From a virus, in IMG/VR virus record IMGVR_UViG_3300025647_000209, positions 1-27,760 of that record: a stretch of DNA of 27,760 nt. One strand, written 5' to 3'. The notes beneath the pieces are model-generated. The model saw only the letters and a program-made list of their open reading frames with translations, made no database searches and was not told the DNA's origin. Numbering within the stretch: the stretch's first letter is position 1; each line of letters opens with the position of its first letter. The position numbers were made by a program, and so were the translations under genes. Shown in pieces: positions 419 to 19,117 of the stretch.

Positions 419-588
419 TAATTTCTCCCATTAAACCAAGAAAATCTTTCAGACTGTTCTGTTTTTTCTTTTTGATAATTTGTATTTAATTGATTTTGTA
501 AGCTTTCTAAAGCTAAGTTAATTTGTCTAAAAGCATCAGGAGTAAATTCCTGCGGTGGTTCAGGTAAGAATACATTTACTTTAGCCAT
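418..588 (-). CDS. 56-residue small protein between tail genes
   Basis: This short gene starts at ATG 588 (MAKVNVFLPEPPQEFTPDAF) and ends at TAA 420-418. Both junctions are TAATG overlaps, with the tail-stabilisation gene upstream and the truncated virion gene downstream. Those overlaps are the main reason to believe it is real. The N-terminus is Pro-rich; the middle is a probable helix (residues about 18-45, FRQINLALESLQNQL) that could form a short coiled coil; it ends in RFSWFNGRN. I do not recognise a domain. Its position suggests a minor tail component or assembly factor, but that is inference from context only. Confidence 0.7.
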   Translation of the reverse strand: MAKVNVFLPEPPQEFTPDAFRQINLALESLQNQLNTNYQKEKTEQSERFSWFNGRN

Positions 589-2507
589 TATCTTCTACCA
601 TCTGGTTGTATATCAAATCTAAACTGACCGAATCTCCAGCTTTCATTAACAGCATCATTTTCTACTTTTAAAGCTGCTAATCTACTTCTAGCTCTAGTAT
701 CTATTTTATCTGTTGATGAATTAATAGTAAAAGGCCCTAATGTAGAACTTGTTTGCGTATCAGCAGGGTATCTTCTTAATAATATAGTTATCTTTGCATT
801 ACCATTTAAATATTTAAAGTCAGGTATAAATCTTCTTACTTTAATAAAGTATTGTCCATCACCATCTGCATCTAAATCGAAATCTCCTGATGTAATATAA
901 GCTGGAATTGGATTTATAGTTCCATTTGCTAATACTTCATTTGTTCCTATTTCGTGATTAAATACTCTAGACATTCCATTTGATACACCTTGAATTGTTG
1001 GCGTAGTCGGAGCTGTATTAACCATAAATTGAGTAGCCATTGGATCATCAAATACGTGTGAATCAATGTACGAAGTTCTTGCTAAAGAACTAGTTGTCCA
1101 AGTCTGTTCCGCATAATTATATGTAACTAGTTTATTAACATAATTAGAATTAAAACTTGCATAAAACCAATAGATTTCAGAATATAAACTATTATGAGCT
1201 CCATAAGTTAATTCTGATCCGTTAGCAAAATTAAAACCTGGTGCACCATCGTCTGTTAAGAATACATAATCTTCAACTAAAGAAGGAATACTTTTAACAG
1301 TACCATCAAACATAAAAAATCCACCTGAGTCACCAATCCAATAAACAGCACCATTTGCATACACAATTGAATGTTGACCTACACAACCACAGTTAGATCC
1401 TACTTGTCTAATACTAAATGTAAAAGGAGGTCCTACGAACTGCATTAGGTATGCAGAAGTATCAGTTAAAATTAATATATAATCTTTCGCTTTAGCTGCA
1501 CCTATAATTTTAGTTCCGCTATCAATTCTAAAAGAACCTGCTGTATTTACAGATGTTGCTGTATAATCCGTTAAGGATTCTTGATCCGAGAACCGTATAA
1601 ACATTTTATCTTGTGTACCAGGTGAACCAATAGTTGTTTCAGTTCCTAAAATGATTAAATGCCTATCTCTATCTGATACCATACTCATTACAGATTTTGT
1701 TGGTGCTCCAGCAATAATTGTAGCTCTTGTATTTATACCTGCACCTGAATTTGGATCCCAAGAAAAAGTTGCACCATTTTTAATTGTTGCAATTAATAGT
1801 TCACCATAGTTATCTAAAGACCAACTACCGGGATCAAGAACTGCATTTGATGTTGTTCGTGGTGTACCCCAAGTTGAAGAACCATATAAACCTGTACCCC
1901 AACCATAACCATAAGCTTGCAATAAAGGACCTACTTTGTAATAAGGTTTAGAATCTAATGTTCCATCATTAGTGGCACCTGTGCCTGTTTCAGCTGTAGG
2001 CATTAAAATTGTAAAAGTTGTAGTTGTTGGTGCAAGTTGCACTTCAAATAATATATCATCAAAATCAGCAGCAACATAATCTGTTTGCCCCGCAGTAAAA
2101 GATCCTGCATTTTCAAATGTTAATAAATCACCTGGTTCAAGATTGTGAGCAGATGGGCAAGTAATTTCTACGGTTCGTGATCCGTTAGTCGTGGTAATAT
2201 CGCATCCTGTTTGAGCTAAAGATGTATCAAATGGAGTAATATCATAATAATCATCACCGTTATATATATATAAAATCTTATTAGTACCGAGTGCAACATA
2301 TTTCCTCCCGTCTAAATCTGCCCAACTATGTGAAGCTCTTACTGCTCCAACTAATTGTTTATTAAGTATTTCTTGCCAGCCACCTATTTTTTCAGGCATA
2401 CCATATCTAAATCTAACATAGTCACCATCTACCCATTGGTTTTCGGCTCCTGAGTCAGACGCTTGTTTATTAAATCCTGGTGCAAAGTTTACTTTTGTTA
2501 AAGGCAT
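588..2507 (-). CDS. P22 gp10-like tail/DNA-stabilisation protein
   Basis: This large protein of about 639 residues opens MPLTKVNFAPGFNKQASDSG and continues ENQWVDGDYVRFRYGMPEKI. That N-terminal block is characteristic of phage stabilisation proteins of the P22 gp10 type, the tail-hub component that plugs the portal-adaptor channel after DNA packaging. The rest is beta-rich with many Gly/Thr/Tyr and WDPNSGAG, WIGDSGGFF and similar loops, consistent with a propeller or hub fold. Two starts are possible: ATG 2507 (chosen, because the family begins MPLT) or GTG 2522, which would add five residues and overlap the upstream stop as TAGTG. Neither has a clear ribosome-binding site. The stop overlaps the next ATG (TAATG). 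Confidence 0.85.
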   Translation of the reverse strand: MPLTKVNFAPGFNKQASDSGAENQWVDGDYVRFRYGMPEKIGGWQEILNKQLVGAVRASHSWADLDGRKYVALGTNKILYIYNGDDYYDITPFDTSLAQTGCDITTTNGSRTVEITCPSAHNLEPGDLLTFENAGSFTAGQTDYVAADFDDILFEVQLAPTTTTFTILMPTAETGTGATNDGTLDSKPYYKVGPLLQAYGYGWGTGLYGSSTWGTPRTTSNAVLDPGSWSLDNYGELLIATIKNGATFSWDPNSGAGINTRATIIAGAPTKSVMSMVSDRDRHLIILGTETTIGSPGTQDKMFIRFSDQESLTDYTATSVNTAGSFRIDSGTKIIGAAKAKDYILILTDTSAYLMQFVGPPFTFSIRQVGSNCGCVGQHSIVYANGAVYWIGDSGGFFMFDGTVKSIPSLVEDYVFLTDDGAPGFNFANGSELTYGAHNSLYSEIYWFYASFNSNYVNKLVTYNYAEQTWTTSSLARTSYIDSHVFDDPMATQFMVNTAPTTPTIQGVSNGMSRVFNHEIGTNEVLANGTINPIPAYITSGDFDLDADGDGQYFIKVRRFIPDFKYLNGNAKITILLRRYPADTQTSSTLGPFTINSSTDKIDTRARSRLAALKVENDAVNESWRFGQFRFDIQPDGRR

Positions 2508-2521
2508 GCGAACATTATACA

Positions 2522-2857
2522 CTATGATTTTTTAGGTATAAATATCGTCCATTCTAGCTTAGACAGCAAATCATTTATGTAGACTTTAGTTAGTTTATTT
2601 TTCTTTATGTATTGATGAAGTTCTTTTAAATCTAAAATGACCCATTTATCTTCCATTTCTAAAACCATTTTATCTGCTTTACTATCTGTTCTCCCTTTTT
2701 GAGCAGGGGTACCATCAGGAAGATTAAACATATCCCTTACATCAAATCTATAAAAAGCATTTTTGTCTTTTATAATACCTGCAATATTCCAAGATGCCTT
2801 TTCTTTTGGGTATTCGATAGCTGTTAAATTTTCAGAAAATCTATCTACTATATTCAT
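2522..2857 (-). CDS. Conserved-looking hypothetical protein, 111 residues
   Basis: This soluble, charged protein starts MNIVDRFSENLTAIEYPKEK at ATG 2857 and has no membrane segment. A C-terminal block WVILDLKELHQYIKKNKL, followed by VYINDLLSKLEW, looks like a compact alpha/beta domain, and I have an impression of similar C-termini in other marine phages, but I cannot name a family. It lies between the oxygenase cassette and the tail-stabilisation gene, six bases after the preceding oxygenase stop. Its TAG stop at 2524-2522 overlaps a GTG that is the alternative start of the tail gene. No function is proposed. Confidence 0.65.
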   Translation of the reverse strand: MNIVDRFSENLTAIEYPKEKASWNIAGIIKDKNAFYRFDVRDMFNLPDGTPAQKGRTDSKADKMVLEMEDKWVILDLKELHQYIKKNKLTKVYINDLLSKLEWTIFIPKKS

Positions 2858-2863
2858 AGAAGA

Positions 2864-3427
2864 CTAATAATAATTATACCAACCAGTTATAATATATTTT
2901 TCTTTTGTTTTACTTATTTGACCTTTATGTATATGAGTAAAATCTGAAGGCCAAATCACAGTTAAACCTTTTACTGCTTTAGTAGTTATATTTTGATACT
3001 TAAAAATTGTTCCTCCATCTTCCACATTATTTAAATATGTCATAAAAACTAACATTCTTTTTGTAGTTGATAGTCCACCTCTTTCAGAATGTTCAGCAAA
3101 AAACCCCTCATTCTTTTTATATTTTTGAATTTGATAATTTTCTATTGTAGAGATAAATCTATCATGTTGGTTTATTTGTGGATATTTTTTCATATATTCA
3201 ACTAAACATTTTTGTAGTTCATCATTATAATTATCTAATGCTGAATCATATCCTGATATAGATATATCAGTGCTTATTTTTTTTTCTGGATAAACTCCAT
3301 AACTACATAAACCAGGATTTTGTCTATGTTTATTATTTTCAAAAAAATTAATTAATTCATCACATACTTTTTCATTAATGTACCACCCACCTATAAAACT
3401 ATCTAATTTAAATTTTTCTTCTTTCAT
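2864..3427 (-). CDS. 2OG-Fe(II) oxygenase-like protein (HxE type)
   Basis: This 187-residue protein fits the double-stranded beta-helix dioxygenase fold, which couples 2-oxoglutarate decarboxylation to hydroxylation of an unknown substrate. Visible signature: FFAEHSERGG (H113, E115 as the HxE iron pair), R124 in TTKRMLVFMTYLNNVEDGGT, then VKGLTVIWPSDFTHIHKG with H165/H167 as the distal iron ligand, and a basic residue (K176) about ten residues later as the candidate 2OG anchor. The 'RMLVFMTYLN-(x)-V-(x2)-GGT' block is typical of phage members. ATG 3427 directly abuts the stop of the gene before it in the transcript order. It is the last of five minus-strand oxygenases in this cassette. The substrate cannot be deduced from sequence. 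Confidence 0.85.
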   Translation of the reverse strand: MKEEKFKLDSFIGGWYINEKVCDELINFFENNKHRQNPGLCSYGVYPEKKISTDISISGYDSALDNYNDELQKCLVEYMKKYPQINQHDRFISTIENYQIQKYKKNEGFFAEHSERGGLSTTKRMLVFMTYLNNVEDGGTIFKYQNITTKAVKGLTVIWPSDFTHIHKGQISKTKEKYIITGWYNYY

Positions 3428-3931
3428 TTATTTAAAATAATTAAAATTAATAACTAATCTAATTTTTTTGTTCGTATGAGTAGTGCCAGTATGCTCTGTA
3501 TTTACAGGAAAACTAACAAGTCTATTAGCTTTACTTTTTATTTGTTTTTTAAGTTTTGGAAAAACTGTGTAACCATTATTATCATTTATATAATAAACAG
3601 ATGTTGTAGCTCCTTTTACTTCTTCTTTAAAATCAGTATGAAGTTTTAAAGGAACAACTTTATTATACATTGTAGTTAAATTTGCTTTTATTTTAATTAT
3701 TTTTTTAGGATTAATTTTATTTAAAATTGGATTTAATATATTAAAATAATCACTATTAATTATATCATTGATATAAAATATATGTGCAAATTGAAAATAA
3801 AAATCTTTTTTATCATTTTCATATGCAGTAGAACTGTAATAATACCATGGAAAAGTATTACTTTCAAAAGTTTTATAAATATTATTTAATATTTTTTTAT
3901 CTATAAGGTTATCTTTAATCTTTATGTTCAT
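3428..3931 (-). CDS. 2OG-Fe(II) oxygenase-like protein (HxD...H...R)
   Basis: Starting at ATG 3931 (MNIKIKDNLIDKKILNNIYK) gives 167 residues. A complete motif set is present: LHTDFKEE (H98, D100), TTSVYYINDNNGYTVF as the core strand pair, then SKANRLVSFP, TEHTGTTHTNKKIRLVINFN with H147 as distal iron ligand and R158 as the 2OG-binding arginine. The 'YYIN-NNG-T-F ... NR-V-FP ... HTGT' pattern is one I recall from small phage oxygenases. A longer reading from a TTG at 4000 would overlap the previous oxygenase by 86 bases and adds a non-family N-terminus, so it was not used. It overlaps the upstream gene by 17 bases. The A/T content is visibly higher than in the capsid genes. Substrate unknown. 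Confidence 0.88.
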   Translation of the reverse strand: MNIKIKDNLIDKKILNNIYKTFESNTFPWYYYSSTAYENDKKDFYFQFAHIFYINDIINSDYFNILNPILNKINPKKIIKIKANLTTMYNKVVPLKLHTDFKEEVKGATTSVYYINDNNGYTVFPKLKKQIKSKANRLVSFPVNTEHTGTTHTNKKIRLVINFNYFK

Positions 3932-4445
3932 AAGAATAAGAACTGTTAAATACAATAACTGTTTTGTTTGTAGTAGTTTTGGGAGATTTATGAACAACAA
4001 AAGCAGGAAAAGTTATTAGATCTCCTTCTTCTACGTCGAAATTATATTCTTTACCATACATATCTTTTATTAAAGTTTTGTCTTTTTTGTTAGGTAAATC
4101 TAAAAAGTATATATTAGTAAAATTACATCTTGGGTGGGTATGCCAAGCATAAACATCATTCTTTTCATAAATATGAAACCAAACATTTTGCATATCTATT
4201 TTATTAGAACTAAAGTAATCAAAAATTTGATTGTATTCAGGTTTTAACATTTCAGCAAATGTTGTTAAATAAAGTTTTTTACTATTATCCTCAACATACC
4301 AATCACTTTTAGAAACAACCGAATAAGGATATTCTAGTTTTTGATTTATGGTTTTTTTAATTAATTTTAATAATTTAGCTTTATATTTTTTATGATTCTT
4401 TACCTTTATCTTTATAAAAGGACATTTTATTTCTTGTACTATCAC
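3915..4445 (-). CDS. 2OG-Fe(II) oxygenase-like protein (WHxHP type)
   Basis: This 176-residue protein has the WHTHPRCNFTNIYFLDLP block (H102, H104), followed by GDLITFPAFVVHKSP, with H152 as the distal ligand and Lys156/161 in place of the usual arginine. That layout resembles the putative 2OG-Fe(II) oxygenase family with an HxH-type N-terminal ligand region (Pfam 2OG-FeII_Oxy_5-like). The start is GTG 4445, chosen because it overlaps the preceding TAG as TAGTG, like the other coupled junctions here, and no in-frame ATG lies near. It shares general architecture with the plus-strand gene at 5955-6509, so the two may be distant paralogues. The substrate is unknown. Confidence 0.82.
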   Translation of the reverse strand: MIVQEIKCPFIKIKVKNHKKYKAKLLKLIKKTINQKLEYPYSVVSKSDWYVEDNSKKLYLTTFAEMLKPEYNQIFDYFSSNKIDMQNVWFHIYEKNDVYAWHTHPRCNFTNIYFLDLPNKKDKTLIKDMYGKEYNFDVEEGDLITFPAFVVHKSPKTTTNKTVIVFNSSYSYEHKD

Positions 4446-4666
4446 TACAGCTTATCTCTAATAATTTGTTTTAGTTCTGTTATTTTTTCTAAAAAGGTAT
4501 CATTTATTTTTTGTAATGTTTCTATTGTAATTTCTAGATTAATGATGTGTTTTTTTAAATCTCTATTAATTATAACTTCATTTGCTTTTACTTGTTTTTC
4601 CATACTAACAAGATCTTTTAAATCTTGTATTTCTTTTTCGAGTTGTTCTTGTTTTTTTATATCCAT
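4445..4666 (-). CDS. Small coiled-coil protein inside oxygenase cassette
   Basis: This is a 73-residue, almost fully helical protein with leucine/isoleucine heptads throughout (LEKEIQDLKDLV, LEITIETLQKINDTFLEKI). It has no Cys, Pro or membrane segment. It has a good ribosome-binding site (AAGGAG seven bases before ATG 4666) and its TAG stop overlaps the next gene's GTG. The setting, in the middle of five consecutive minus-strand oxygenases, raises the idea that it oligomerises with one of them or with a tail fibre, but nothing in the sequence shows that directly. Confidence 0.7.
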   Translation of the reverse strand: MDIKKQEQLEKEIQDLKDLVSMEKQVKANEVIINRDLKKHIINLEITIETLQKINDTFLEKITELKQIIRDKL

Positions 4667-4677
4667 AATTTATCTCC

Positions 4678-5289
4678 TTATATTTTTGGTAATCCTAAGT
4701 GAGGTCTTCCATCATATATCCTAGATTTGTTTTGTTTTTTATCTTCGTTATAATGAAGAAATACCTGTGCACATAATTCTTTTTTAAATTTTTCTCTCCA
4801 ATGATAAACTTCACAACCTTTATAAATTAACATATCACCTTGCTTTAAAGTAATTTTAATTTTTTCTTTTGTTTCTGGAATCTCTAAATAGATAGGCCAT
4901 ATATCACCCCCTAAATTCAAAGTAGTCGATATTTCACAACTAGGTCTATCTATATGTCTTTTTAACTCGCATCCTTTTACATAAATTCTAGCATAAGAAT
5001 AAGTTGAAAATAATTTTTTATTTAATTTTTTTTGTACTATGGGTCTTATTTTTTCTAATAATGTTTCCATAGCTGAATCTGAATAATAAGAAAAAGCTTC
5101 TGGCGATTGAGGATCATTAAATTTTCCAAATAAATTACTATTATTTTCATTTATATTTAAATTTTTATAAATTGGATTTTGAGTTAATTGAACAAATACT
5201 GATCTTTTTAATAAAAAATAAGTATAAATAAAATCTGCTAAATCTTTAGAAATTGCATTTCTAACTATTTTATAATGAATTTTTTTCAT
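4678..5289 (-). CDS. 2OG-Fe(II) oxygenase-like protein (GDMLIYKGCEVYHWRE type)
   Basis: This 203-residue protein has RHIDRPSCEISTTLNLGG (H112, D114 as HxD) and GDMLIYKGCEVYHWRE with H163 as distal iron ligand, then CAQVFLHYNE. This last pair of blocks is a recognisable signature of a widespread phage and bacterial oxygenase group, in which the usual downstream 2OG arginine is not obvious. R165 sits in the WRE motif. The N-terminal 90 residues are helical and basic. ATG 5289 begins one base after the preceding oxygenase stop. The function in the cell is unknown; protein or glycan hydroxylation are the general family possibilities. Confidence 0.87.
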   Translation of the reverse strand: MKKIHYKIVRNAISKDLADFIYTYFLLKRSVFVQLTQNPIYKNLNINENNSNLFGKFNDPQSPEAFSYYSDSAMETLLEKIRPIVQKKLNKKLFSTYSYARIYVKGCELKRHIDRPSCEISTTLNLGGDIWPIYLEIPETKEKIKITLKQGDMLIYKGCEVYHWREKFKKELCAQVFLHYNEDKKQNKSRIYDGRPHLGLPKI

Positions 5290-5290
5290 T

Positions 5291-5890
5291 TTATTTTAGA
5301 TGCTCTCCTAAACTCCAATTAACTAAAGAATATCTTAAACCTTTAGTAACTGGTGTAACTCTATGCCAAGTATTAGCGGTAAATACACATACTGATCCTT
5401 GAGGCATTATTTCTTTTGCTGTTAAAATTTTATTTTTTTCACCTGGTTTAGGATCACAGAATTGTAATTCTCCTCCTTTGTAGTCTTTTGGATCAGATAA
5501 ATTTATGACACAAGAAATTTTTCTATTAAATTTAGGGTCTTTGTCTGCTTGATAAGCATCTTGATGCCAATTATAAAAATTATTTTTATTGTAAATTGTA
5601 AATTGACTACCTTCTGAATGAGTAAGAGTATAGTTCCATCCAGCGTTTTTATTTGCAATTTTTACATAATGATGAATTATGTCCCACAACCATTGTTCAT
5701 GAATGAAAGAAACATTTGATTTTCTTGTTTTTTCTAAAGCTTTTAAATCTTTTTTACTTAAATCTTTAGGATTCATAGACATAATTGTACCCTGTCTAAC
5801 ATTACTTGAAAAACCAGTTTTTATTATTTTTTCACAGTTTTCTTTTGATATAGCTGCCGTAAAATACCAATATAAAAATTTGTATATCAT
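5291..5890 (-). CDS. Prolyl-4-hydroxylase-like 2OG-Fe(II) oxygenase
   Basis: This 199-residue protein has the clearest motif set of the cassette: NWHQDAY (H109, D111), RKISCVINLSDPKDYKGGEL, LQFCDP, then GSVCVFTANTWHRVTPVTKG with H176, and LRYSLVNW with R186. That matches the PKHD-type/P4H-like oxygenases often found in marine phages, and the opening MIYKFLYWYFTAAISKENCE is also family-like. These enzymes hydroxylate proline or other side chains in proteins. It is the first gene of the minus-strand cassette and lies just downstream of a good sigma70-like promoter (5912-5940). It could therefore be expressed separately from the structural operon. Confidence 0.92.
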   Translation of the reverse strand: MIYKFLYWYFTAAISKENCEKIIKTGFSSNVRQGTIMSMNPKDLSKKDLKALEKTRKSNVSFIHEQWLWDIIHHYVKIANKNAGWNYTLTHSEGSQFTIYNKNNFYNWHQDAYQADKDPKFNRKISCVINLSDPKDYKGGELQFCDPKPGEKNKILTAKEIMPQGSVCVFTANTWHRVTPVTKGLRYSLVNWSLGEHLK

Positions 5891-5911
5891 TAATTTATTA
5901 AGTTAAACATT

Positions 5912-5940
5912 TGTATATTGATTTTAAAGTATAAAGTCAA
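5912..5940 (-). promoter_or_regulatory. Sigma70-like promoter for the minus-strand oxygenase cassette
   Basis: Read on the minus strand, TTGACT (5940-5935) is followed by a 17-base spacer and TATACA (5917-5912), a near-consensus sigma70 arrangement. The first oxygenase ATG is at 5890, so the leader would be about 15 bases. It lies in the only divergent intergenic region of the window. Not experimentally supported. Confidence 0.55.
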
Positions 5941-5943
5941 TAT
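5915..5943. repeat. Inverted repeat spanning the divergent promoters
   Basis: A perfect 7-base inverted repeat, ATATTGA (5915-5921) and TCAATAT (5937-5943), is separated by 15 bases. It covers the -35/-10 elements of both predicted promoters, so it could be an operator, though in such AT-rich DNA it may simply reflect two similar promoter halves facing each other. Confidence 0.4.
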
Positions 5944-5946
5944 TAT
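5918..5946 (+). promoter_or_regulatory. Divergent sigma70-like promoter for the plus-strand oxygenase gene
   Basis: On the plus strand TTGATT (5918-5923), a 17-base spacer and TATTAT (5941-5946) precede the ATG at 5955 by eight bases. Transcription would start almost at the start codon, and no Shine-Dalgarno sequence is visible, so a leaderless message is possible. Its elements physically overlap those of the minus-strand promoter, which should make the two mutually exclusive. Confidence 0.4.
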
Positions 5947-5954
5947 GTACTTTT

Positions 5955-6509
5955 ATGCAAAATCTTATTAGTTTACCTATTATAATATATAAATACCCTG
6001 AATTGAATAATCTAAAAATAAAAGATGAGCTTTTAAAATATTTAAAAGATAACAGCTGTTGTTATAGTTATCCTAATTGTACTCATCCAAAGTATCAATC
6101 TGCACCAAATTTATTTGACCTAAATAATAAAGAAATAAAGCAATTGAAAAAATATTATTTTAATTGTCTAAAAAAACAATTTAATAAATTTAAAATTATA
6201 GAAAACAAAAGTTGGGTTTTTTTAACTGAATCAAATAAAGAAATTTCTTCTGTTTGGCACAATCATTTTAATAAAAAATTTAAAGGTAAAAATATAAAAC
6301 AAATATCAGGTATATGTTATATTACAAAAACACCTACTGGGACTTGTTTTGAAAATAACTATTTTTTTTCTTTAATAAAACCTCATTTACATCATTGGTA
6401 TATATTTGATTCAAATTTACACCATTGCCCATTAAAAGAAGTAGTTTTAGAAAAAAGAATTATTATTGCAACTTCAACTATTATTGAGCTAAATCCCAAG
6501 ACTGAGTAG
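5955..6509 (+). CDS. 2OG-Fe(II) oxygenase-like protein, sole plus-strand gene
   Basis: This 184-residue protein has WHNHFNKKFKG (H102, H104), KQISGICYITKTPTGTCF, then WYIFDSNLHHCPLKE with H156/H157 and EKRIIIATSTII with R168. This is the putative 2OG-Fe(II) oxygenase layout (2OG-FeII_Oxy_5-like) in which SGxxYI and the final R-I-I-A-x-S strand are distinctive. It also has two adjacent Cys at 35-36. It is the only gene on this strand, is very A/T-rich, has its own promoter candidate and overlaps the tail gene at 6481-6837 tail-to-tail by 29 bases. That pattern suggests an acquired accessory gene (a moron). Substrate unknown. Confidence 0.83.
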   Translation: MQNLISLPIIIYKYPELNNLKIKDELLKYLKDNSCCYSYPNCTHPKYQSAPNLFDLNNKEIKQLKKYYFNCLKKQFNKFKIIENKSWVFLTESNKEISSVWHNHFNKKFKGKNIKQISGICYITKTPTGTCFENNYFFSLIKPHLHHWYIFDSNLHHCPLKEVVLEKRIIIATSTIIELNPKTE

Positions 6510-6837
6510 CTTCATTCCATACATAGGAACTTCCATCATCAGGATATGGAATAGGGGATTCCCATTTAAATTGATTATTTAAAGTCCAAGACTCAAATGG
6601 TTTTGGATATATAAAAGCATCATTAACTGCATCATATTCTCCACCTATACAAGCAGCATTGTATCTAATAGAACCATCAGAAGCGTATTGTTTTATATTA
6701 TTAATTTTTAATAATTGCTTTACAAAATTTTCTGCTTCAACAGAAAAATCACCACCATTATTATTAACATCTGCATCATCAATTACTATTACAGAAGTAA
6801 TTTTATTTTCATCATTTAAAATTGCAAAATTTTTCAT
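6481..6837 (-). CDS. Tail fibre-associated protein, 118 residues
   Basis: The protein opens MKNFAILNDENKITSVIVID and ends with FESWTLNNQFKWESPIPYPD followed by GSSYVWNEATQSWDLA. The 'NYA/YNAACIGGEYD...FIYPKPFESWTLN...W..PIPYP-DG' pattern is widespread in marine phages as a small protein encoded beside tail fibre genes, probably a fibre tip or fibre assembly component. It follows the glycine-rich fibre gene with one base between stop and start codon. It converges with the plus-strand oxygenase, the two stops overlapping by 29 bases. Confidence 0.82.
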   Translation of the reverse strand: MKNFAILNDENKITSVIVIDDADVNNNGGDFSVEAENFVKQLLKINNIKQYASDGSIRYNAACIGGEYDAVNDAFIYPKPFESWTLNNQFKWESPIPYPDDGSSYVWNEATQSWDLAQ

Positions 6838-6838
6838 A

Positions 6839-7717
6839 TTACTCTACTGTTAAAGTTCCACTTACGTTAAATGTACCAATTTTATCTCCTGTAGGTCCAT
6901 CTGTAGTAACTGTATTACTTCCTGGAGCAACAGTTAAAGTTACATCAGAAGGTCCTCTTACAATAATAATACCTGATCCTCCGGCTCCAGATGCTTTACC
7001 TGGATAACTTGGGGCAGGGCCTCCACCGCCTCCGCCGCCTCCGCCGCCGAGTCCGTTTGATCCCGGGCTTCCGCCACTCGAGTTATTTCCTCCCGAACCA
7101 CCGCCGCCAGATCCTCCTGACGCATTTCCGCTTCCAGTGGGAGTTTCTAAACCACCAGCACCGCCTCCGCCACGAGTTACTGATGAACCTGTTATTGAAT
7201 TAGCTACTCCATTTCCTCCAGATCTTGGTTGTCCAGTTTGACCTGATCCACCGCCGCCTCCAGCAGGACCTGGTCCTCCTGGATTTCCTTCTGGTGGTGT
7301 GTATCCTCCAGCATTTCCTGCTCCATTACCGTTTCCACCTCCAGATCCTCCTGGATCACCTGTTCCATCTCTTGTTCCCATTCCTCCACCTGTAGAAGAA
7401 AAATTACCATCTAAATAAGCAATAGTAGAATTTCCACCTGGACTCTGATTAGGAGCGTCATAATTTGGGCCTGTTGCTCCTGCTCCTCCTGATCCTACAG
7501 TAATTGTGTAAGGTTCTCCAGATACAAAACTAAGTTTAGTTCCACCAGGAAAAGAAGTTCTTTGACCTCCTGCTCCTCCGCCTCCAGAGTTGTAAGCATT
7601 TCCGCCTCCACCGCCTCCGGATAAAATTAAATAATCTAGTTCAAGAATTTTTTTACCGCCAGCTGACAAACCAAAAGCTTTTACCGCTCCAGCTGCTCTA
7701 GAACCTAAAATTGGCAT
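6839..7717 (-). CDS. Glycine-rich tail fibre/tip protein
   Basis: This 292-residue protein is about half Gly and Ser from residue 34 on. It has an N-terminal domain (MPILGSRAAGAVKAFGLSAG), then YLILSGGGGGG, which is the standard entry of glycine-rich phage tail domains, long poly-Gly runs with Pro (GNPGGPGPAGGG, SPGSNGLGG), then GSGIIIVRGPSDVTLTVAPG and a C-terminal beta part. Such regions form polyglycine-II bundles in known receptor-binding tail proteins, so it most likely contacts the host surface. A ribosome-binding site (GGAGG) precedes ATG 7717. The DNA is strikingly more G/C-rich than its surroundings. It is a plausible target of the neighbouring hydroxylase-like genes, by inference. 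Confidence 0.85.
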   Translation of the reverse strand: MPILGSRAAGAVKAFGLSAGGKKILELDYLILSGGGGGGNAYNSGGGGAGGQRTSFPGGTKLSFVSGEPYTITVGSGGAGATGPNYDAPNQSPGGNSTIAYLDGNFSSTGGGMGTRDGTGDPGGSGGGNGNGAGNAGGYTPPEGNPGGPGPAGGGGGSGQTGQPRSGGNGVANSITGSSVTRGGGGAGGLETPTGSGNASGGSGGGGSGGNNSSGGSPGSNGLGGGGGGGGGGPAPSYPGKASGAGGSGIIIVRGPSDVTLTVAPGSNTVTTDGPTGDKIGTFNVSGTLTVE

Positions 7718-7735
7718 TTTTTTATATTCCTCCTA

Positions 7736-8809
7736 TTATGCAAACTGTGTTTGTGCTGCTAAAACAGTAAATGTTGCAGATCCTGTTTTTATAACAGTAT
7801 ATGAATAAACATCAGTGCTACTAGCGTTTCCTGCAGTAGGTGCAGAACCGCCTTGCCATATTGGAGTTACTCCAGATCCATCAATTTGTACTGCTGAATT
7901 ATAATAAGCTGTTCCACCTTGAGGTACTGCATGAACAACAGTAATTGACTCTCCTGTGTCCATAATTGAATCAAGTGAATTAGAACCATCTCCTCTAATA
8001 TTTAGAGTCCAGTTTCCTGACGCATCTGTTGTAAAATTCCAAACAGCCTGAGTAATAACATCATAGTTAACTGTTCCTGTAGCAGCTGTCGCTTCAGTAG
8101 TAACTTTTTCAGCTACATGTTGAATTTTACCTGCTCCATTAAAAGTTATTCTTCCAATTCCTTTTGGAGTTAAATTTAAATCAACATTAGTGTCACCACC
8201 TGTTGCTGATACATTTGGAGCATTTCCAGTCGCAGCATTTGTTACTGTTAATTCGTTAACAGCAGATGCAGTTGTAGCAAATTTAATTTGCTCTAAACCG
8301 TTTTCATCTCCAATGAAGTTTCCATTATCAATTAAAATATTGTTTCCGTTTGCATCTAAGTTACCACCTAATTGAGGTGTAGTATCTTCAACAATATCTT
8401 TTAAGAAAAATACATCAACAACATTTGTTCCATCAGAATAAACCATTACTGATTTACCTGCAGGTATTGTTACACCTGATCCAGAAACTGTTTTAAAAGT
8501 TAAAGTAAAACCTGCTCTTGTTGTACCATCTACAACAATGTAAGTTTTTTCAATTCCATCTGGTACATTAACACTTCTATTTGCTGCTAAAGTTCCAGTT
8601 AATTTTAATACAATGTTTCTAGCATTTGATAATGCAGCTTGAGACATAGTTAAAGTTACATCTGCTGATGCAACATCGATAGCTTCATAACCTGCAATTG
8701 CTTGTTGTAATAAGTTTAAATTTGTATTTGTTTTATCTCCCCATGTACCCGAGTTTTCACCCGTTACCATCAGTTCGAGTTTTAAATCTGTAGAATAACT
8801 TGATGCCAT
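7736..8809 (-). CDS. Tail fibre protein
   Basis: This 357-residue protein opens with SYSTDLKLELMVTGENSGTW, followed by GDKTNTNLNLLQQAIAG. That N-terminal block is, to my knowledge, one of the most typical tail fibre starts in marine phages, and probably the virion attachment domain. Residues about 60-130 are beta-strand-rich (NIVLKLTGTLAANRSVNVPD, YIVVDGTTRAGFTLTFKTVS), then LGGNLDANGNNILIDNGN, a fibre-shaft repeat style, and a C-terminal Ser/Thr-rich beta region. It lies upstream of the glycine-rich tip gene, so the two probably form one fibre. It ends in a short VLAAQTQFA tail. No chaperone-like peptidase domain is visible. Confidence 0.85.
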   Translation of the reverse strand: MASSYSTDLKLELMVTGENSGTWGDKTNTNLNLLQQAIAGYEAIDVASADVTLTMSQAALSNARNIVLKLTGTLAANRSVNVPDGIEKTYIVVDGTTRAGFTLTFKTVSGSGVTIPAGKSVMVYSDGTNVVDVFFLKDIVEDTTPQLGGNLDANGNNILIDNGNFIGDENGLEQIKFATTASAVNELTVTNAATGNAPNVSATGGDTNVDLNLTPKGIGRITFNGAGKIQHVAEKVTTEATAATGTVNYDVITQAVWNFTTDASGNWTLNIRGDGSNSLDSIMDTGESITVVHAVPQGGTAYYNSAVQIDGSGVTPIWQGGSAPTAGNASSTDVYSYTVIKTGSATFTVLAAQTQFA

Positions 8810-8849
8810 AATTTTTATCCTTTTTTATAATATTTAAATTTTATTTCCA

Positions 8850-10175
8850 TTACGCTGCTATGTCAACTACTGTCCAAGTAGGAGCAGTTCCTGGATCAAC
8901 AACAGCCCACGCGTTTATACCCATTATACCCGTACTTACTGTGCTTGTCACTCCTGTAGGTTCAACAATTATACTAATACCTGCAGCATAGTCACCTATT
9001 TCGAATGGCCCTAATTGTTGACCTGTTACTTGAACATTAACATTTGTAAAGGCATCTTCATTACCAATAGCTGTTGTTATTTGTTCACCTGTTAAATTTA
9101 GTGTTGCTGTACCTGATATACTTACATCTTCAACATTAGTTGTAGTTGCAATACCTATAACATCTACTTCAACACTAGGTGTAGCAACTTCTTCACCACC
9201 TATTCCAATATCAGTTCCAACACCTTGACCCCATTGACCTTCTCCATATGGAGCATAACCCCAATTTACAGCAGAGGCTGTTCTTACTTGTACTTCAATA
9301 TTTGGACCACCAAATACTCCGTCAGTAGAAATATTTAACTCTTCACCAGTAAATGAATAGATAGAAGCTTGTTCTAATGTATCTGTAGTTACATTTATTT
9401 CTTCACCTGTTAATGTAACTGAACCTGTACCTGTATTTTCAGTTTCAGTACCTGTAATAATAGTGATACCATCTCCAACGCCCCATTGACCTGCGCCCCA
9501 GTATTCTGTTCCCCACTCATCATTTGCTGGAGAACTAACTTCAACAACAACTAATTCACCTGCAAATACTCCGTCAGTATCTATATCTAATTGAGTTAAT
9601 GGATTTAAAGTTACTAAAACAGATGTTCCAGCAGTTTCATTTCCTGTAGTTATGCTTCTTTGTTGACCTGTTACATTAACATTTGCATTTGCTTCAATTG
9701 TAACTGTATCTGTTGTTGTGTTAATTAATTGACCTGTTAATTGAACTTCTGGAGAAGATAATTCACCCCATTCTCCTGCACCCCAATATAAACCACCCCA
9801 ACCTATTTGTATTTGAGCATCAACTGTTACTGATTCAACAACTGTATTAATTTGATTACCTTGAAGTTGAAGAGTACCTAAAATACCCCAACCATTTACA
9901 CCCCAAGTTTGTCTTCCCCAACCTGAATTAATCTCACCATCTACGGTTTCTTCTCCCAAAGATGTAGCTATTTGAATTCCAGAAACTTCAGCACCATTAT
10001 CAGTAAGATTACCCCAAAGGTTAGCTCCCCACTGTTGACCTCCCCATCCATTTAAGGGAAAAGCCGCTACATCATTAGTTGAAATTGAAATTGTATTACT
10101 ACTTGGGGTAATTGTATTTAAATTACTTTCCCATGAGTTAGAACCCCAGGTGTATTGCCCCCAAGTAGTAGACAT
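8850..10175 (-). CDS. WG-triad repeat virion protein
   Basis: This 441-residue protein carries six triads of Trp spaced exactly five residues apart: W5/10/15, 44/49/54, 86/91/96, 126/131/136, 221/226/231 and 305/Y310/315, of the form GWGxxxWGxxxWG. Between them run Thr/Val-rich beta repeats containing TGEE[IL]N(V/I)(T/S)T or TGQQ. It ends INAWAVVDPGTAPTWTVVDI. Proteins with this W-G pattern occur in many marine phages as virion, probably tail, structural proteins; the exact position in the particle is not known to me. It sits between the 143-residue virion protein and the tail fibre gene. A ribosome-binding site (AAGGAG) lies before ATG 10175. Confidence 0.8.
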   Translation of the reverse strand: MSTTWGQYTWGSNSWESNLNTITPSSNTISISTNDVAAFPLNGWGGQQWGANLWGNLTDNGAEVSGIQIATSLGEETVDGEINSGWGRQTWGVNGWGILGTLQLQGNQINTVVESVTVDAQIQIGWGGLYWGAGEWGELSSPEVQLTGQLINTTTDTVTIEANANVNVTGQQRSITTGNETAGTSVLVTLNPLTQLDIDTDGVFAGELVVVEVSSPANDEWGTEYWGAGQWGVGDGITIITGTETENTGTGSVTLTGEEINVTTDTLEQASIYSFTGEELNISTDGVFGGPNIEVQVRTASAVNWGYAPYGEGQWGQGVGTDIGIGGEEVATPSVEVDVIGIATTTNVEDVSISGTATLNLTGEQITTAIGNEDAFTNVNVQVTGQQLGPFEIGDYAAGISIIVEPTGVTSTVSTGIMGINAWAVVDPGTAPTWTVVDIAA

Positions 10176-18474: not shown

Positions 18475-18927
18475 TTAATATAAATGCAGAATATCTTCTG
18501 GTTTATCTATTGTTGCGATGATTTCATCATCGTTCAAAATACGGTGTTCACCATATTTTGTTTTAAATCTAGAACCGGCATATCTACCGTAGATTACAAA
18601 TTGACCTTTCTTACACCAAGGACCTTTTGGAAATTTTTCTTTATCTTGATAACAAAGATCACCCATCTCAACGACTAAACCTACAACGGTTGTCATTTGA
18701 ATAGTTTCACTTGCATTATCAGTAAGATAAATTCCACCTTTAGTTTTTTTAGGACCCGCATAAGGTCTAACTAAAAGTCTATAACCAACTGGTTTTGGTA
18801 TTACTGAAAGATATTTTTCGATCCCTGCTGGATCAGTGGGTATCGGTGATTCTTTTGAATCAGGCGCGACACCATTATTTACTTTATTGACTCCAACTAA
18901 AGTGGAATCAGGTGTTATTATCGTCAT
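18475..18927 (-). CDS. GroES-like co-chaperonin
   Basis: Starting at ATG 18927 gives 150 residues. The chaperonin-10-like core is GYRLLVRPYAGPKKTKGGIY, LTDNASETIQMTTVVGLVVE, then MGDLCYQDKEKFPKGPWCKK and GQFVIYGRYAGSRFKTKYGE, with the end HRILNDDEIIATID. This is the Cpn10 beta-barrel with a mobile-loop candidate at KKTKGGIYLTDNASE. T4 gp31 is the best-known phage co-chaperonin. It should cap the host GroEL to fold the capsid protein. The first ATG (18933) is only one base from AGGAG, whereas ATG 18927 has the right spacing, so 18927 is preferred. It overlaps the 69-residue gene's end and precedes the scaffold gene. Confidence 0.88.
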   Translation of the reverse strand: MTIITPDSTLVGVNKVNNGVAPDSKESPIPTDPAGIEKYLSVIPKPVGYRLLVRPYAGPKKTKGGIYLTDNASETIQMTTVVGLVVEMGDLCYQDKEKFPKGPWCKKGQFVIYGRYAGSRFKTKYGEHRILNDDEIIATIDKPEDILHLY

Positions 18928-19117
18928 CGACATTCTCCTCGTTTCTCTGCAGGTCTTTAAGATCCTGAAGCAGCGTTTCTAAAGCGCTGAGTTTCCCTCT
19001 AGAATACGATAGTCTGTCGATTGTGTCTACATGGTACACCAAATCCTCTTTGATTTGGGTAATTCTTTTATTAATGAAATGTTTGATACTTTGTAACGTA
19101 TCTAAATCAAGATTCAT
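18908..19117 (-). CDS. Small helical coiled-coil protein, 69 residues
   Basis: The sequence MNLDLDTLQSIKHFINKRIT is followed by KEDLVYHVDTIDRLSYSRGK and LSALETLLQDLKDLQRNEEN, with an acidic tail (VDDDNNT). It is a helical hairpin or coiled coil and resembles small proteins found upstream of phage GroES-like or structural genes in marine phages. It overlaps the methyltransferase end by 11 bases and the co-chaperonin start by about 20 bases. No catalytic motif; function unknown. Confidence 0.7.
   Translation of the reverse strand: MNLDLDTLQSIKHFINKRITQIKEDLVYHVDTIDRLSYSRGKLSALETLLQDLKDLQRNEENVDDDNNT

What the first reader, a model, noticed from the sequence alone, without database searches (positions are those of the whole stretch)
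2864..6509. Cassette of six different 2OG-Fe(II) oxygenase-like genes in 3.6 kb
Six non-identical genes, each with its own iron-ligand motif (HxE, HxD or WHxH), sit in a row, interrupted only by one coiled-coil gene. Phages often carry one or two, but six side by side is a dense accessory island. The different signatures show they are not recent duplicates, so they were collected, which suggests distinct substrates or steps. The block is visibly more A/T-rich than the capsid genes and sits between two tail genes, where phage accessory genes commonly insert.
Basis: partly seen in the sequence, partly recalled or inferred. Interest (0 to 1): 0.66.

Follow-up and report, generated by a model that had tools for sequence, protein, structure and literature searches.

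The report
Oxygenase set beside pelagiphage host-binding genes
A virus of the ocean bacterium SAR11 carries six related iron-dependent oxygenase genes in a block that is swapped between viruses together with a tail-tip gene, which suggests, without proving it, that the enzymes chemically decorate the virus's host-binding tip; one member is called a ferrochelatase (a heme enzyme) in the literature, and that name looks wrong.

Summary
Six distinct genes (19-30% pairwise identity) at 2864-6509 belong to one oxygenase-fold superfamily; five run together on the minus strand and the sixth lies on the plus strand. The window is a fragment of an HTVC023P-type pelagiphage, and six is typical there, not exceptional: 26 complete islands from relatives hold 1-10 such genes, median 6. 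The iron triad is kept in about 96% of 303 island proteins and selection is purifying (median dN/dS 0.15). About a third, including two of the six, have three histidines (HxH...H) instead of HxD/E...H, so calling them 2-oxoglutarate enzymes is less secure. Gene E's family is labelled 'ferrochelatase' in PHROGs and in two papers; fold, invariant residues and Pfam say it is a prolyl-hydroxylase-like oxygenase. The unit exchanged between near-identical phages (window 2856-7730) holds a glycine-rich putative adhesin, a small tail-associated gene and all oxygenases. Other islands add tryptophan halogenases, sulfotransferases, carbamoyltransferases and methyltransferases. Best reading: a tailoring module for the tail-tip adhesin. 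The substrate is inferred, not shown. Co-located 2OG genes in these phages are already published; new here are the re-annotation, the three-His class and the adhesin-linked module.

The parts
2864..3427 (-). Gene A, 187 aa, 2OG-Fe(II) oxygenase (HxE..H)
   Evidence: PF13640 1.9e-9; phrog_61 1.1e-37; triad H,E,H in profile alignment
3428..3931 (-). Gene B, 167 aa, 2OG-Fe(II) oxygenase (HxD..H); its PHROG is labelled 'DNA endonuclease V'
   Evidence: phrog_274 1.6e-38; PF13640 1e-5, 26.8 vs 27 bits; triad H,D,H
3915..4445 (-). Gene C, 176 aa, PF13759-like three-histidine member (WHxH..H)
   Evidence: PF13759 9.3e-6; phrog_81 1e-20; triad H,H,H
4445..4666 (-). Gene D, 73 aa, coiled-coil-like, function unknown; relatives in about ten loci
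   Evidence: only weak coiled-coil Pfam matches; family of 10
4678..5289 (-). Gene E, 203 aa, prolyl-hydroxylase-like oxygenase; PHROG and GenBank relatives call it 'ferrochelatase'
   Evidence: phrog_2954 3.5e-48; invariant H112, D114, H163 in 41 proteins; AlphaFold pLDDT 93, best PDB matches are prolyl hydroxylases; no Pfam match in 41 members
5291..5890 (-). Gene F, 199 aa, PKHD/PiuC-like 2OG-Fe(II) oxygenase (HxD..H)
   Evidence: PF13640 5.3e-16; weak matches to NCBIfam PRK05467 PKHD-type dioxygenases, below cut-off
5955..6509 (+). Gene G, 184 aa, three-histidine oxygenase-fold protein (WHxH..H), opposite strand
   Evidence: no Pfam or PHROG match; joins the superfamily through relatives; AlphaFold pLDDT 88.8, PDB matches PHD2 and 3bvc
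6481..6837 (-). phrog_7759 protein, 118 aa, tail-associated; conserved W..P.P.P.DG..Y.W motif; part of the exchanged block
   Evidence: phrog_7759 4.4e-26; family alignment; beside oxygenases in several phage lineages
6839..7717 (-). Glycine-rich protein, 292 aa, putative adhesin; part of the exchanged block
   Evidence: PF21722 Gly_rich_2 1.5e-14; phrog_2295
2856..7730 (.). Exchange block: Gly-rich gene, phrog_7759 gene and all oxygenases, replaced as one unit between otherwise about 90% identical phages
   Evidence: blastn of the window against L002, L035, L009, L016, L060
7736..8809 (-). Flank: fibre-like protein, conserved across related phages
   Evidence: phrog_31104 5.4e-45; about 90% nt identity to L002 up to the block edge
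588..2522 (-). Flank: virion structural protein; anchor used to find relatives
   Evidence: phrog_3287 7.1e-90; 80 loci

Best explanation
The block is an exchangeable adhesin-plus-tailoring module of an HTVC023P-type pelagiphage. Shown: six genes of one oxygenase-fold superfamily with conserved iron ligands, in a family under purifying selection, lying beside a Gly-rich putative adhesin gene and the tail-associated phrog_7759 gene and exchanged together with them. Inferred: they are made with the tail proteins and oxidise side chains (most likely hydroxylation) of the neighbouring tail-tip proteins in the infected cell, before or during assembly; in sister islands halogenase, sulfotransferase, carbamoyltransferase and methyltransferase genes would add further groups to the same proteins. 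The benefit would be diversification of the host-binding surface beyond what sequence change alone allows. The HxD/E members would be ordinary Fe(II)/2OG hydroxylases; for the three-His members the co-substrate is open. The confidence given is for the adhesin-modification mechanism; for the oxygenase fold itself it is about 0.95.
For: (1) Superfamily and ligands; folds; best structural matches of E include enzymes that hydroxylate proteins (P. putida P4H, solved with EF-Tu; PHD; chlorella-virus collagen prolyl hydroxylase vCPH). (2) Active and selected: 290 of 303 keep the triad; median dN/dS 0.15, maximum 0.40, in 79 non-independent pairs. (3) Location: in the isolates HTVC023P and HTVC027P every superfamily gene detected in the whole genome lies in this tail block. 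(4) Exchange unit: the window and L002 are about 90% identical outside and essentially unrelated inside 2856-7730, which holds the Gly-rich gene, the phrog_7759 gene and the oxygenases; L035, L009, L016 and L060 break at about the same places. (5) The same neighbourhood in unrelated phages: P-RSM4 and other cyanomyoviruses, HTVC008M, HTVC033P, freshwater DSL-LC04, ctNMl277; in 8 of 9 records with both families the nearest oxygenase lies 0.5-2.4 kb from the phrog_7759 gene (per-record p 0.016-0.12; the three cyanophages are related, so not all independent). It recurs in 7 of 14 phage-like contigs found in bacterial assemblies with gene E alone. (6) Tailoring enzymes in sister islands: Trp halogenase-like in 13 loci, carbamoyltransferase-like in 5, three sulfotransferase-like clusters in 5+2+2, methyltransferase-like clusters in 4+3 (clusters, Pfam of representatives; the cluster of 3 is named from sequence appearance only). 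(7) Precedent: mimivirus L230 hydroxylates lysines of viral collagen-like proteins, and hydroxylysine is found in its particles (PMC9614988).
Against: No substrate is shown. HTVC008M has about 20 superfamily members across its genome, several beside replication and repair genes, and Melnitz-3 has three far from its phrog_7759 gene, so the superfamily is not only a tail matter. The phrog_7759 gene also occurs in phages without any detected oxygenase, with its motif intact, so it does not need them. The correlation of oxygenase content with phrog_7759 similarity is modest (rank r 0.46, p 0.008 with 18 loci; 0.30, p 0.017 with 24) and disappears when islands are split in half. Co-exchange can also come from physical linkage alone in a recombination hot spot. 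Some islands (L047, L056, L062, L063) hold oxygenases without the Gly-rich and phrog_7759 genes, beside a different fibre type. That the Gly-rich protein is an adhesin is itself inferred from its family and position.
Confidence: 0.45

Rival explanations
1. The enzymes remodel the host cell surface (glycans, lipids or outer-membrane proteins) during infection, for example to block superinfection; they sit in a hot spot next to tail genes because that is where accessory genes insert.
For: Sulfotransferase, carbamoyltransferase and methyltransferase neighbours would also suit surface glycans; glycosyltransferase genes lie downstream in HTVC023P and HTVC027P; the islands are hypervariable.
Against: The exchanged unit includes the putative adhesin genes, and the link to Gly-rich and phrog_7759 genes recurs in unrelated phages. 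The closest solved relatives of E are protein prolyl hydroxylases.
Confidence: 0.18
2. The enzymes repair or modify nucleic acid, AlkB-like, as proposed for cyanophage homologues.
For: Published for cyanophage 2OG genes (PMC2984593; PMC11288001); in HTVC008M some members lie beside UvsY or polymerase accessory genes; the E model also matches AlkB, more weakly.
Against: In the two complete HTVC023P-type isolates all members lie in the tail block, none among replication genes. Six to ten divergent enzymes are many for DNA repair.
Confidence: 0.09
3. They are metabolic genes that consume 2-oxoglutarate or serve iron and heme metabolism (with the 'ferrochelatase').
For: Proposed by Sullivan 2010 (PMC3037559), PMC9599517 and PMC11561400.
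Against: The ferrochelatase partner is not supported: oxygenase fold and triad, no Pfam match. Bulk 2OG consumption does not need many divergent enzymes exchanged with adhesin genes.
Confidence: 0.07
4. The enzymes tailor a small molecule or short peptide, perhaps the coiled-coil ORF D, as in natural-product pathways.
For: Halogenase, sulfotransferase, carbamoyltransferase and methyltransferase together are typical tailoring enzymes; small ORF D recurs in about ten loci.
Against: No core biosynthetic gene is seen; D is absent from most islands.
Confidence: 0.09
5. The genes are counter-defence or host-takeover proteins that happen to sit in an accessory hot spot; the substrate is a host defence or translation protein.
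For: The closest solved relative of E is a bacterial P4H that was crystallised with EF-Tu; variable content fits an arms race.
Against: Linkage with adhesin genes across phages. The window was not scanned against the PADLOC library.
Confidence: 0.1

Closest known systems
2OG-Fe(II) oxygenase plus 'ferrochelatase' gene sets of HTVC023P-type pelagiphages (PMC9599517, 2022; seasonal enrichment in PMC11561400, 2024)
   Same: Same phage group, same genes; eight non-orthologous 2OG genes reported as often near one another and next to 'ferrochelatase'.
   Different: There the partner is a heme enzyme and the genes count as metabolic. Here the partner is another oxygenase, a three-His class is recognised, the genes are adjacent and form one unit with the putative adhesin genes.
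T4-like cyanophage cassette T4-GC 303/412/615/616/617/618/155/619/101 (P-RSM4, S-SSM5; same layout in S-MS29)
   Same: Six superfamily genes around the phrog_7759 homologue; a Gly-rich gene lies upstream in P-RSM4.
   Different: Myoviruses of cyanobacteria; a carbamoyltransferase is included; annotated piecemeal as ferrochelatase, TPR protein, leprecan-like and PF05721-containing proteins.
HTVC008M (SAR11 myovirus) block gp067-gp072
   Same: Four annotated 2OG genes, 'ferrochelatase' and a further weak superfamily gene in a row beside phrog_7759 and Gly-rich genes.
   Different: About 20 superfamily members genome-wide, many outside tail regions.
P. putida P4H, PHD2, PBCV-1 vCPH (prolyl hydroxylases); mimivirus L230 lysyl hydroxylase
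   Same: Fold and HxD..H triad (E); virus-coded hydroxylases acting on structural proteins are a precedent for the proposed role (PMC9614988).
   Different: 10-16% identity to the solved prolyl hydroxylases; E lacks the usual Arg/Lys after the second His; substrate unknown.
PF13759 / TIGR02466 (PDB 3bvc, 2rg4, uncharacterised)
   Same: HxH..H layout of C and relatives.
   Different: C is just below the Pfam cut-off and far below the TIGR cut-off; G matches neither.

Membership tests
Fe(II)/2OG oxygenase superfamily | Double-stranded beta-helix oxygenase fold | tested here: met
   E and G by AlphaFold and Foldseek against PDB; A and F by Pfam above cut-off, B and C just below; all linked by iterated HMMs
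Fe(II)/2OG oxygenase superfamily | HxD/E...H iron triad in A, B, E, F | tested here: met
   E family invariant H112, D114, H163
Fe(II)/2OG oxygenase superfamily | HxD/E...H iron triad in C and G | tested here: not met
   HxH..H instead, shared by 107 of 303 island proteins; they have the fold but are not filed as proven 2OG enzymes
Fe(II)/2OG oxygenase superfamily | Basic residue for 2OG about 9-12 residues after the second His | tested here: inconclusive
   Arg/Lys in 106 of 107 HHH, all 14 HEH and 145 of 169 HDH proteins within +8 to +14; gene E has Gln there and an invariant Arg at +2
Fe(II)/2OG oxygenase superfamily | 2OG-dependent turnover | not testable with these tools
   needs purified protein
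Ferrochelatase (label of phrog_2954, gene E) | Match to the Pfam ferrochelatase family | tested here: not met
   0 of 41 family members match any Pfam family at E<=0.01
Ferrochelatase (label of phrog_2954, gene E) | Ferrochelatase (chelatase) fold | tested here: not met
   AlphaFold pLDDT 93; the 50 listed PDB matches are oxygenases or the uncharacterised 3bvc/2rg4; profile search of PDB sequences finds only weak Tet-like dioxygenase matches
DNA endonuclease V (label of phrog_274, gene B) | Match to an endonuclease V family | tested here: not met
   Pfam hits of B are 2OG_3 and one weak unrelated match; HTVC008M gp039 with the same label matches PF13640 1.3e-7, above cut-off
TIGR02466 (gene C) | Score above the curated cut-off | tested here: not met
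   25.2 vs 62.5 bits; island relative L020:1143-1748 scores 102.9
HTVC023P-type pelagiphage | Shared structural genes and gene order | tested here: met
   portal 69.8% identical to HTVC023P; same run GroES, capsid, fibre region, oxygenases, tail gene; replication genes are outside the window and were not tested
Virion-modifying hydroxylase system | Modified residues on virion proteins | not testable with these tools
   needs virion proteomics

The most novel reading that the evidence does not exclude
Probability: 0.3. Interest if true: 0.9.

Novelty: new variant of a known kind. Interest (0 to 1): 0.58.

Why it matters
HTVC023P-type phages are reported to be the most abundant known pelagiphages (PMC12753301), and why marine phages carry so many 2OG oxygenases is open. 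Existing proposals (DNA repair, 2OG signalling, iron and heme metabolism) rest partly on a 'ferrochelatase' that the evidence here says is another oxygenase. Placing the genes in one exchange unit with a putative adhesin gives a hypothesis that mass spectrometry of a cultured phage could test directly, and the three-His class is a large untested group of likely metal enzymes.

Tried and rejected
Promoter and terminator scan of 2300-8900: no more sites than shuffled sequence (36 vs 36.6), so no promoter is claimed. Partial Mantel test of oxygenase content against phrog_7759 similarity: significant on whole islands, gone on half islands; reported as weak. Phage database search with gene G: no match even at E 0.01. 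PF13640 alone misses many members, so iterated profiles were used; their drift was checked by triad conservation. Plus-strand ORF 4392-4724 (110 aa) is antisense to C, D and E and is treated as spurious. Simple duplication was rejected: 19-30% pairwise identity. Recent capture from a bacterial host was considered: gene E relatives among 85,000 bacterial and archaeal genomes are 14 contigs, at least seven of them with the phage tail arrangement.
Full report
What is there. The window is a 27.76 kb viral record whose portal protein is 69.8% identical to that of Pelagibacter phage HTVC023P and whose structural gene order matches it. Two details change: the sixth gene (5955-6509) is on the plus strand, and the second starts at 3931 rather than at the TTG at 4000.

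Are they one family? Pfam recognises A and F above cut-off and B and C just below; E and G match no 2OG family. Profiles iterated on the ORFs of 80 related loci made A, B, C, F and G converge on nearly the same set, with E linked through B and C; the union is 316 non-overlapping proteins. G joins already in the first round, with a three-member profile at E about 5e-6. In one common alignment of 303 proteins the triad is HxD..H in 169, HxH..H in 107 and HxE..H in 14, so about 96% keep three ligands. Most of the proteins without any recognisable motif form a distinct ligand-less subfamily that includes the HTVC023P ORF at 42548-43051, probably a pseudo-enzyme. Purifying selection is clear: dN/dS median 0.15, maximum 0.40, in 79 non-independent pairs.

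The three-histidine class. C and G and a third of all island proteins have HxH..H. They relate to PF13759 and to the uncharacterised structures 3bvc and 2rg4. An Arg or Lys where 2OG enzymes bind the co-substrate is kept in 106 of 107, so 2OG use is plausible, but a three-His centre is also typical of cupin dioxygenases that do not use 2OG (general knowledge). 59 of 68 loci have at least one such gene.

The 'ferrochelatase'. Gene E belongs to phrog_2954, annotated ferrochelatase in many cyanophage records and treated as a heme-metabolism partner of the 2OG genes in PMC9599517 and PMC11561400. Here the family shows invariant H112, D114 and H163, no Pfam match in 41 members, and a confident model (pLDDT 93) whose best PDB matches are prolyl hydroxylases, with no ferrochelatase among the 50 listed. 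It is an oxygenase-fold protein. The 'DNA endonuclease V' label (phrog_274; gene B) looks wrong in the same way: HTVC008M gp039 with that label matches PF13640 above cut-off. A library search found no paper that had pointed this out, which is not proof of absence.

Is six unusual? No. Twenty-six loci cover the whole island between the fibre gene and the virion gene; they hold 1-10 superfamily genes, median 6, over 1.6-8.3 kb, in shuffled order and on either strand. L006 and L007 are near-identical, and the low count for HTVC023P is an undercount because most of its oxygenases lie on the other side of the fibre gene. Cultured phages have similar sets: P-RSM4, S-SSM5 and S-MS29 six, HTVC008M five or six.

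The exchange unit. The window and L002 are about 90% identical in DNA up to window position 7730 on one side and from 2856 on the other, and nearly unrelated between, apart from short patches in genes E and F; L035, L009, L016 and L060 break at about the same places. The unit therefore contains the Gly-rich gene (PF21722), the phrog_7759 gene and the oxygenases. The same trio occurs in unrelated phages and in 7 of 14 contigs fetched from bacterial assemblies with gene E alone, among them two Pelagibacteraceae genomes.

Other enzymes. Sister islands carry tryptophan-halogenase-like genes (13 loci; Pfam 4e-102 and 1e-108 in the two tested), carbamoyltransferase-like, sulfotransferase-like and methyltransferase-like genes. 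2OG genes also sit beside carbamoyltransferase and halogenase genes in HTVC008M. These are all tailoring chemistries.

Mechanism. The best reading is modification of the tail-tip adhesin. Shown: fold, ligands, selection, co-exchange, neighbourhood. Inferred: co-expression with tail genes, the adhesin role of the Gly-rich protein, the substrate, the chemistry and the benefit. A precedent is mimivirus L230, which hydroxylates viral collagen-like proteins, with hydroxylysine found in particles. Against it: superfamily members far from tail genes in HTVC008M and Melnitz-3, phrog_7759 genes without oxygenases, a correlation test that is only weak, and the possibility that physical linkage alone explains co-exchange.

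Verdict. What the re-examination adds is a corrected annotation, a large three-His class, and a defined adhesin-plus-enzymes exchange unit with a testable role.

Noticed in passing
L024:7851-9446, L014:6376-7905, L027:6349-7821, L048:6089-7585, L025:4595-6163, L002:8122-9618(-) and others: Tryptophan-halogenase-like genes inside oxygenase islands of HTVC023P-type relatives (13 loci).
   Followed up: partly
L082:23549-24052 and relatives in L021, L026, L050, L051, L065: A ligand-less subfamily of the oxygenase fold (no HxD, second His replaced), probably non-catalytic.
   Followed up: partly
window 18475-18933: Phage GroES-like co-chaperonin gene close to the capsid genes (phrog_3188), also present in HTVC023P and HTVC027P.
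   Followed up: no
NC_020484.1 (HTVC008M), whole genome: About 20 oxygenase-superfamily genes in one 147 kb SAR11 myovirus, several labelled DNA endonuclease V.
   Followed up: partly
window 6481-6837 and alignment A4: phrog_7759 proteins share a conserved W..P.P.P.DG..Y.W motif across tail regions of unrelated marine phages; function unknown.
   Followed up: partly
L105, L111 (Pelagibacteraceae genomes); L107, L108, L110, L112 (contigs in a Maricaulis MAG): HTVC023P-like phage contigs inside bacterial assemblies; the first two fit a SAR11 host, the MAG ones look like binned phage contigs.
   Followed up: partly
L009:2563-3123(-), L013:5714-6487: Further cupin/JmjC-like and DUF6445 genes in sister islands, possibly more oxygenase-type enzymes outside the counted superfamily.
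   Followed up: no
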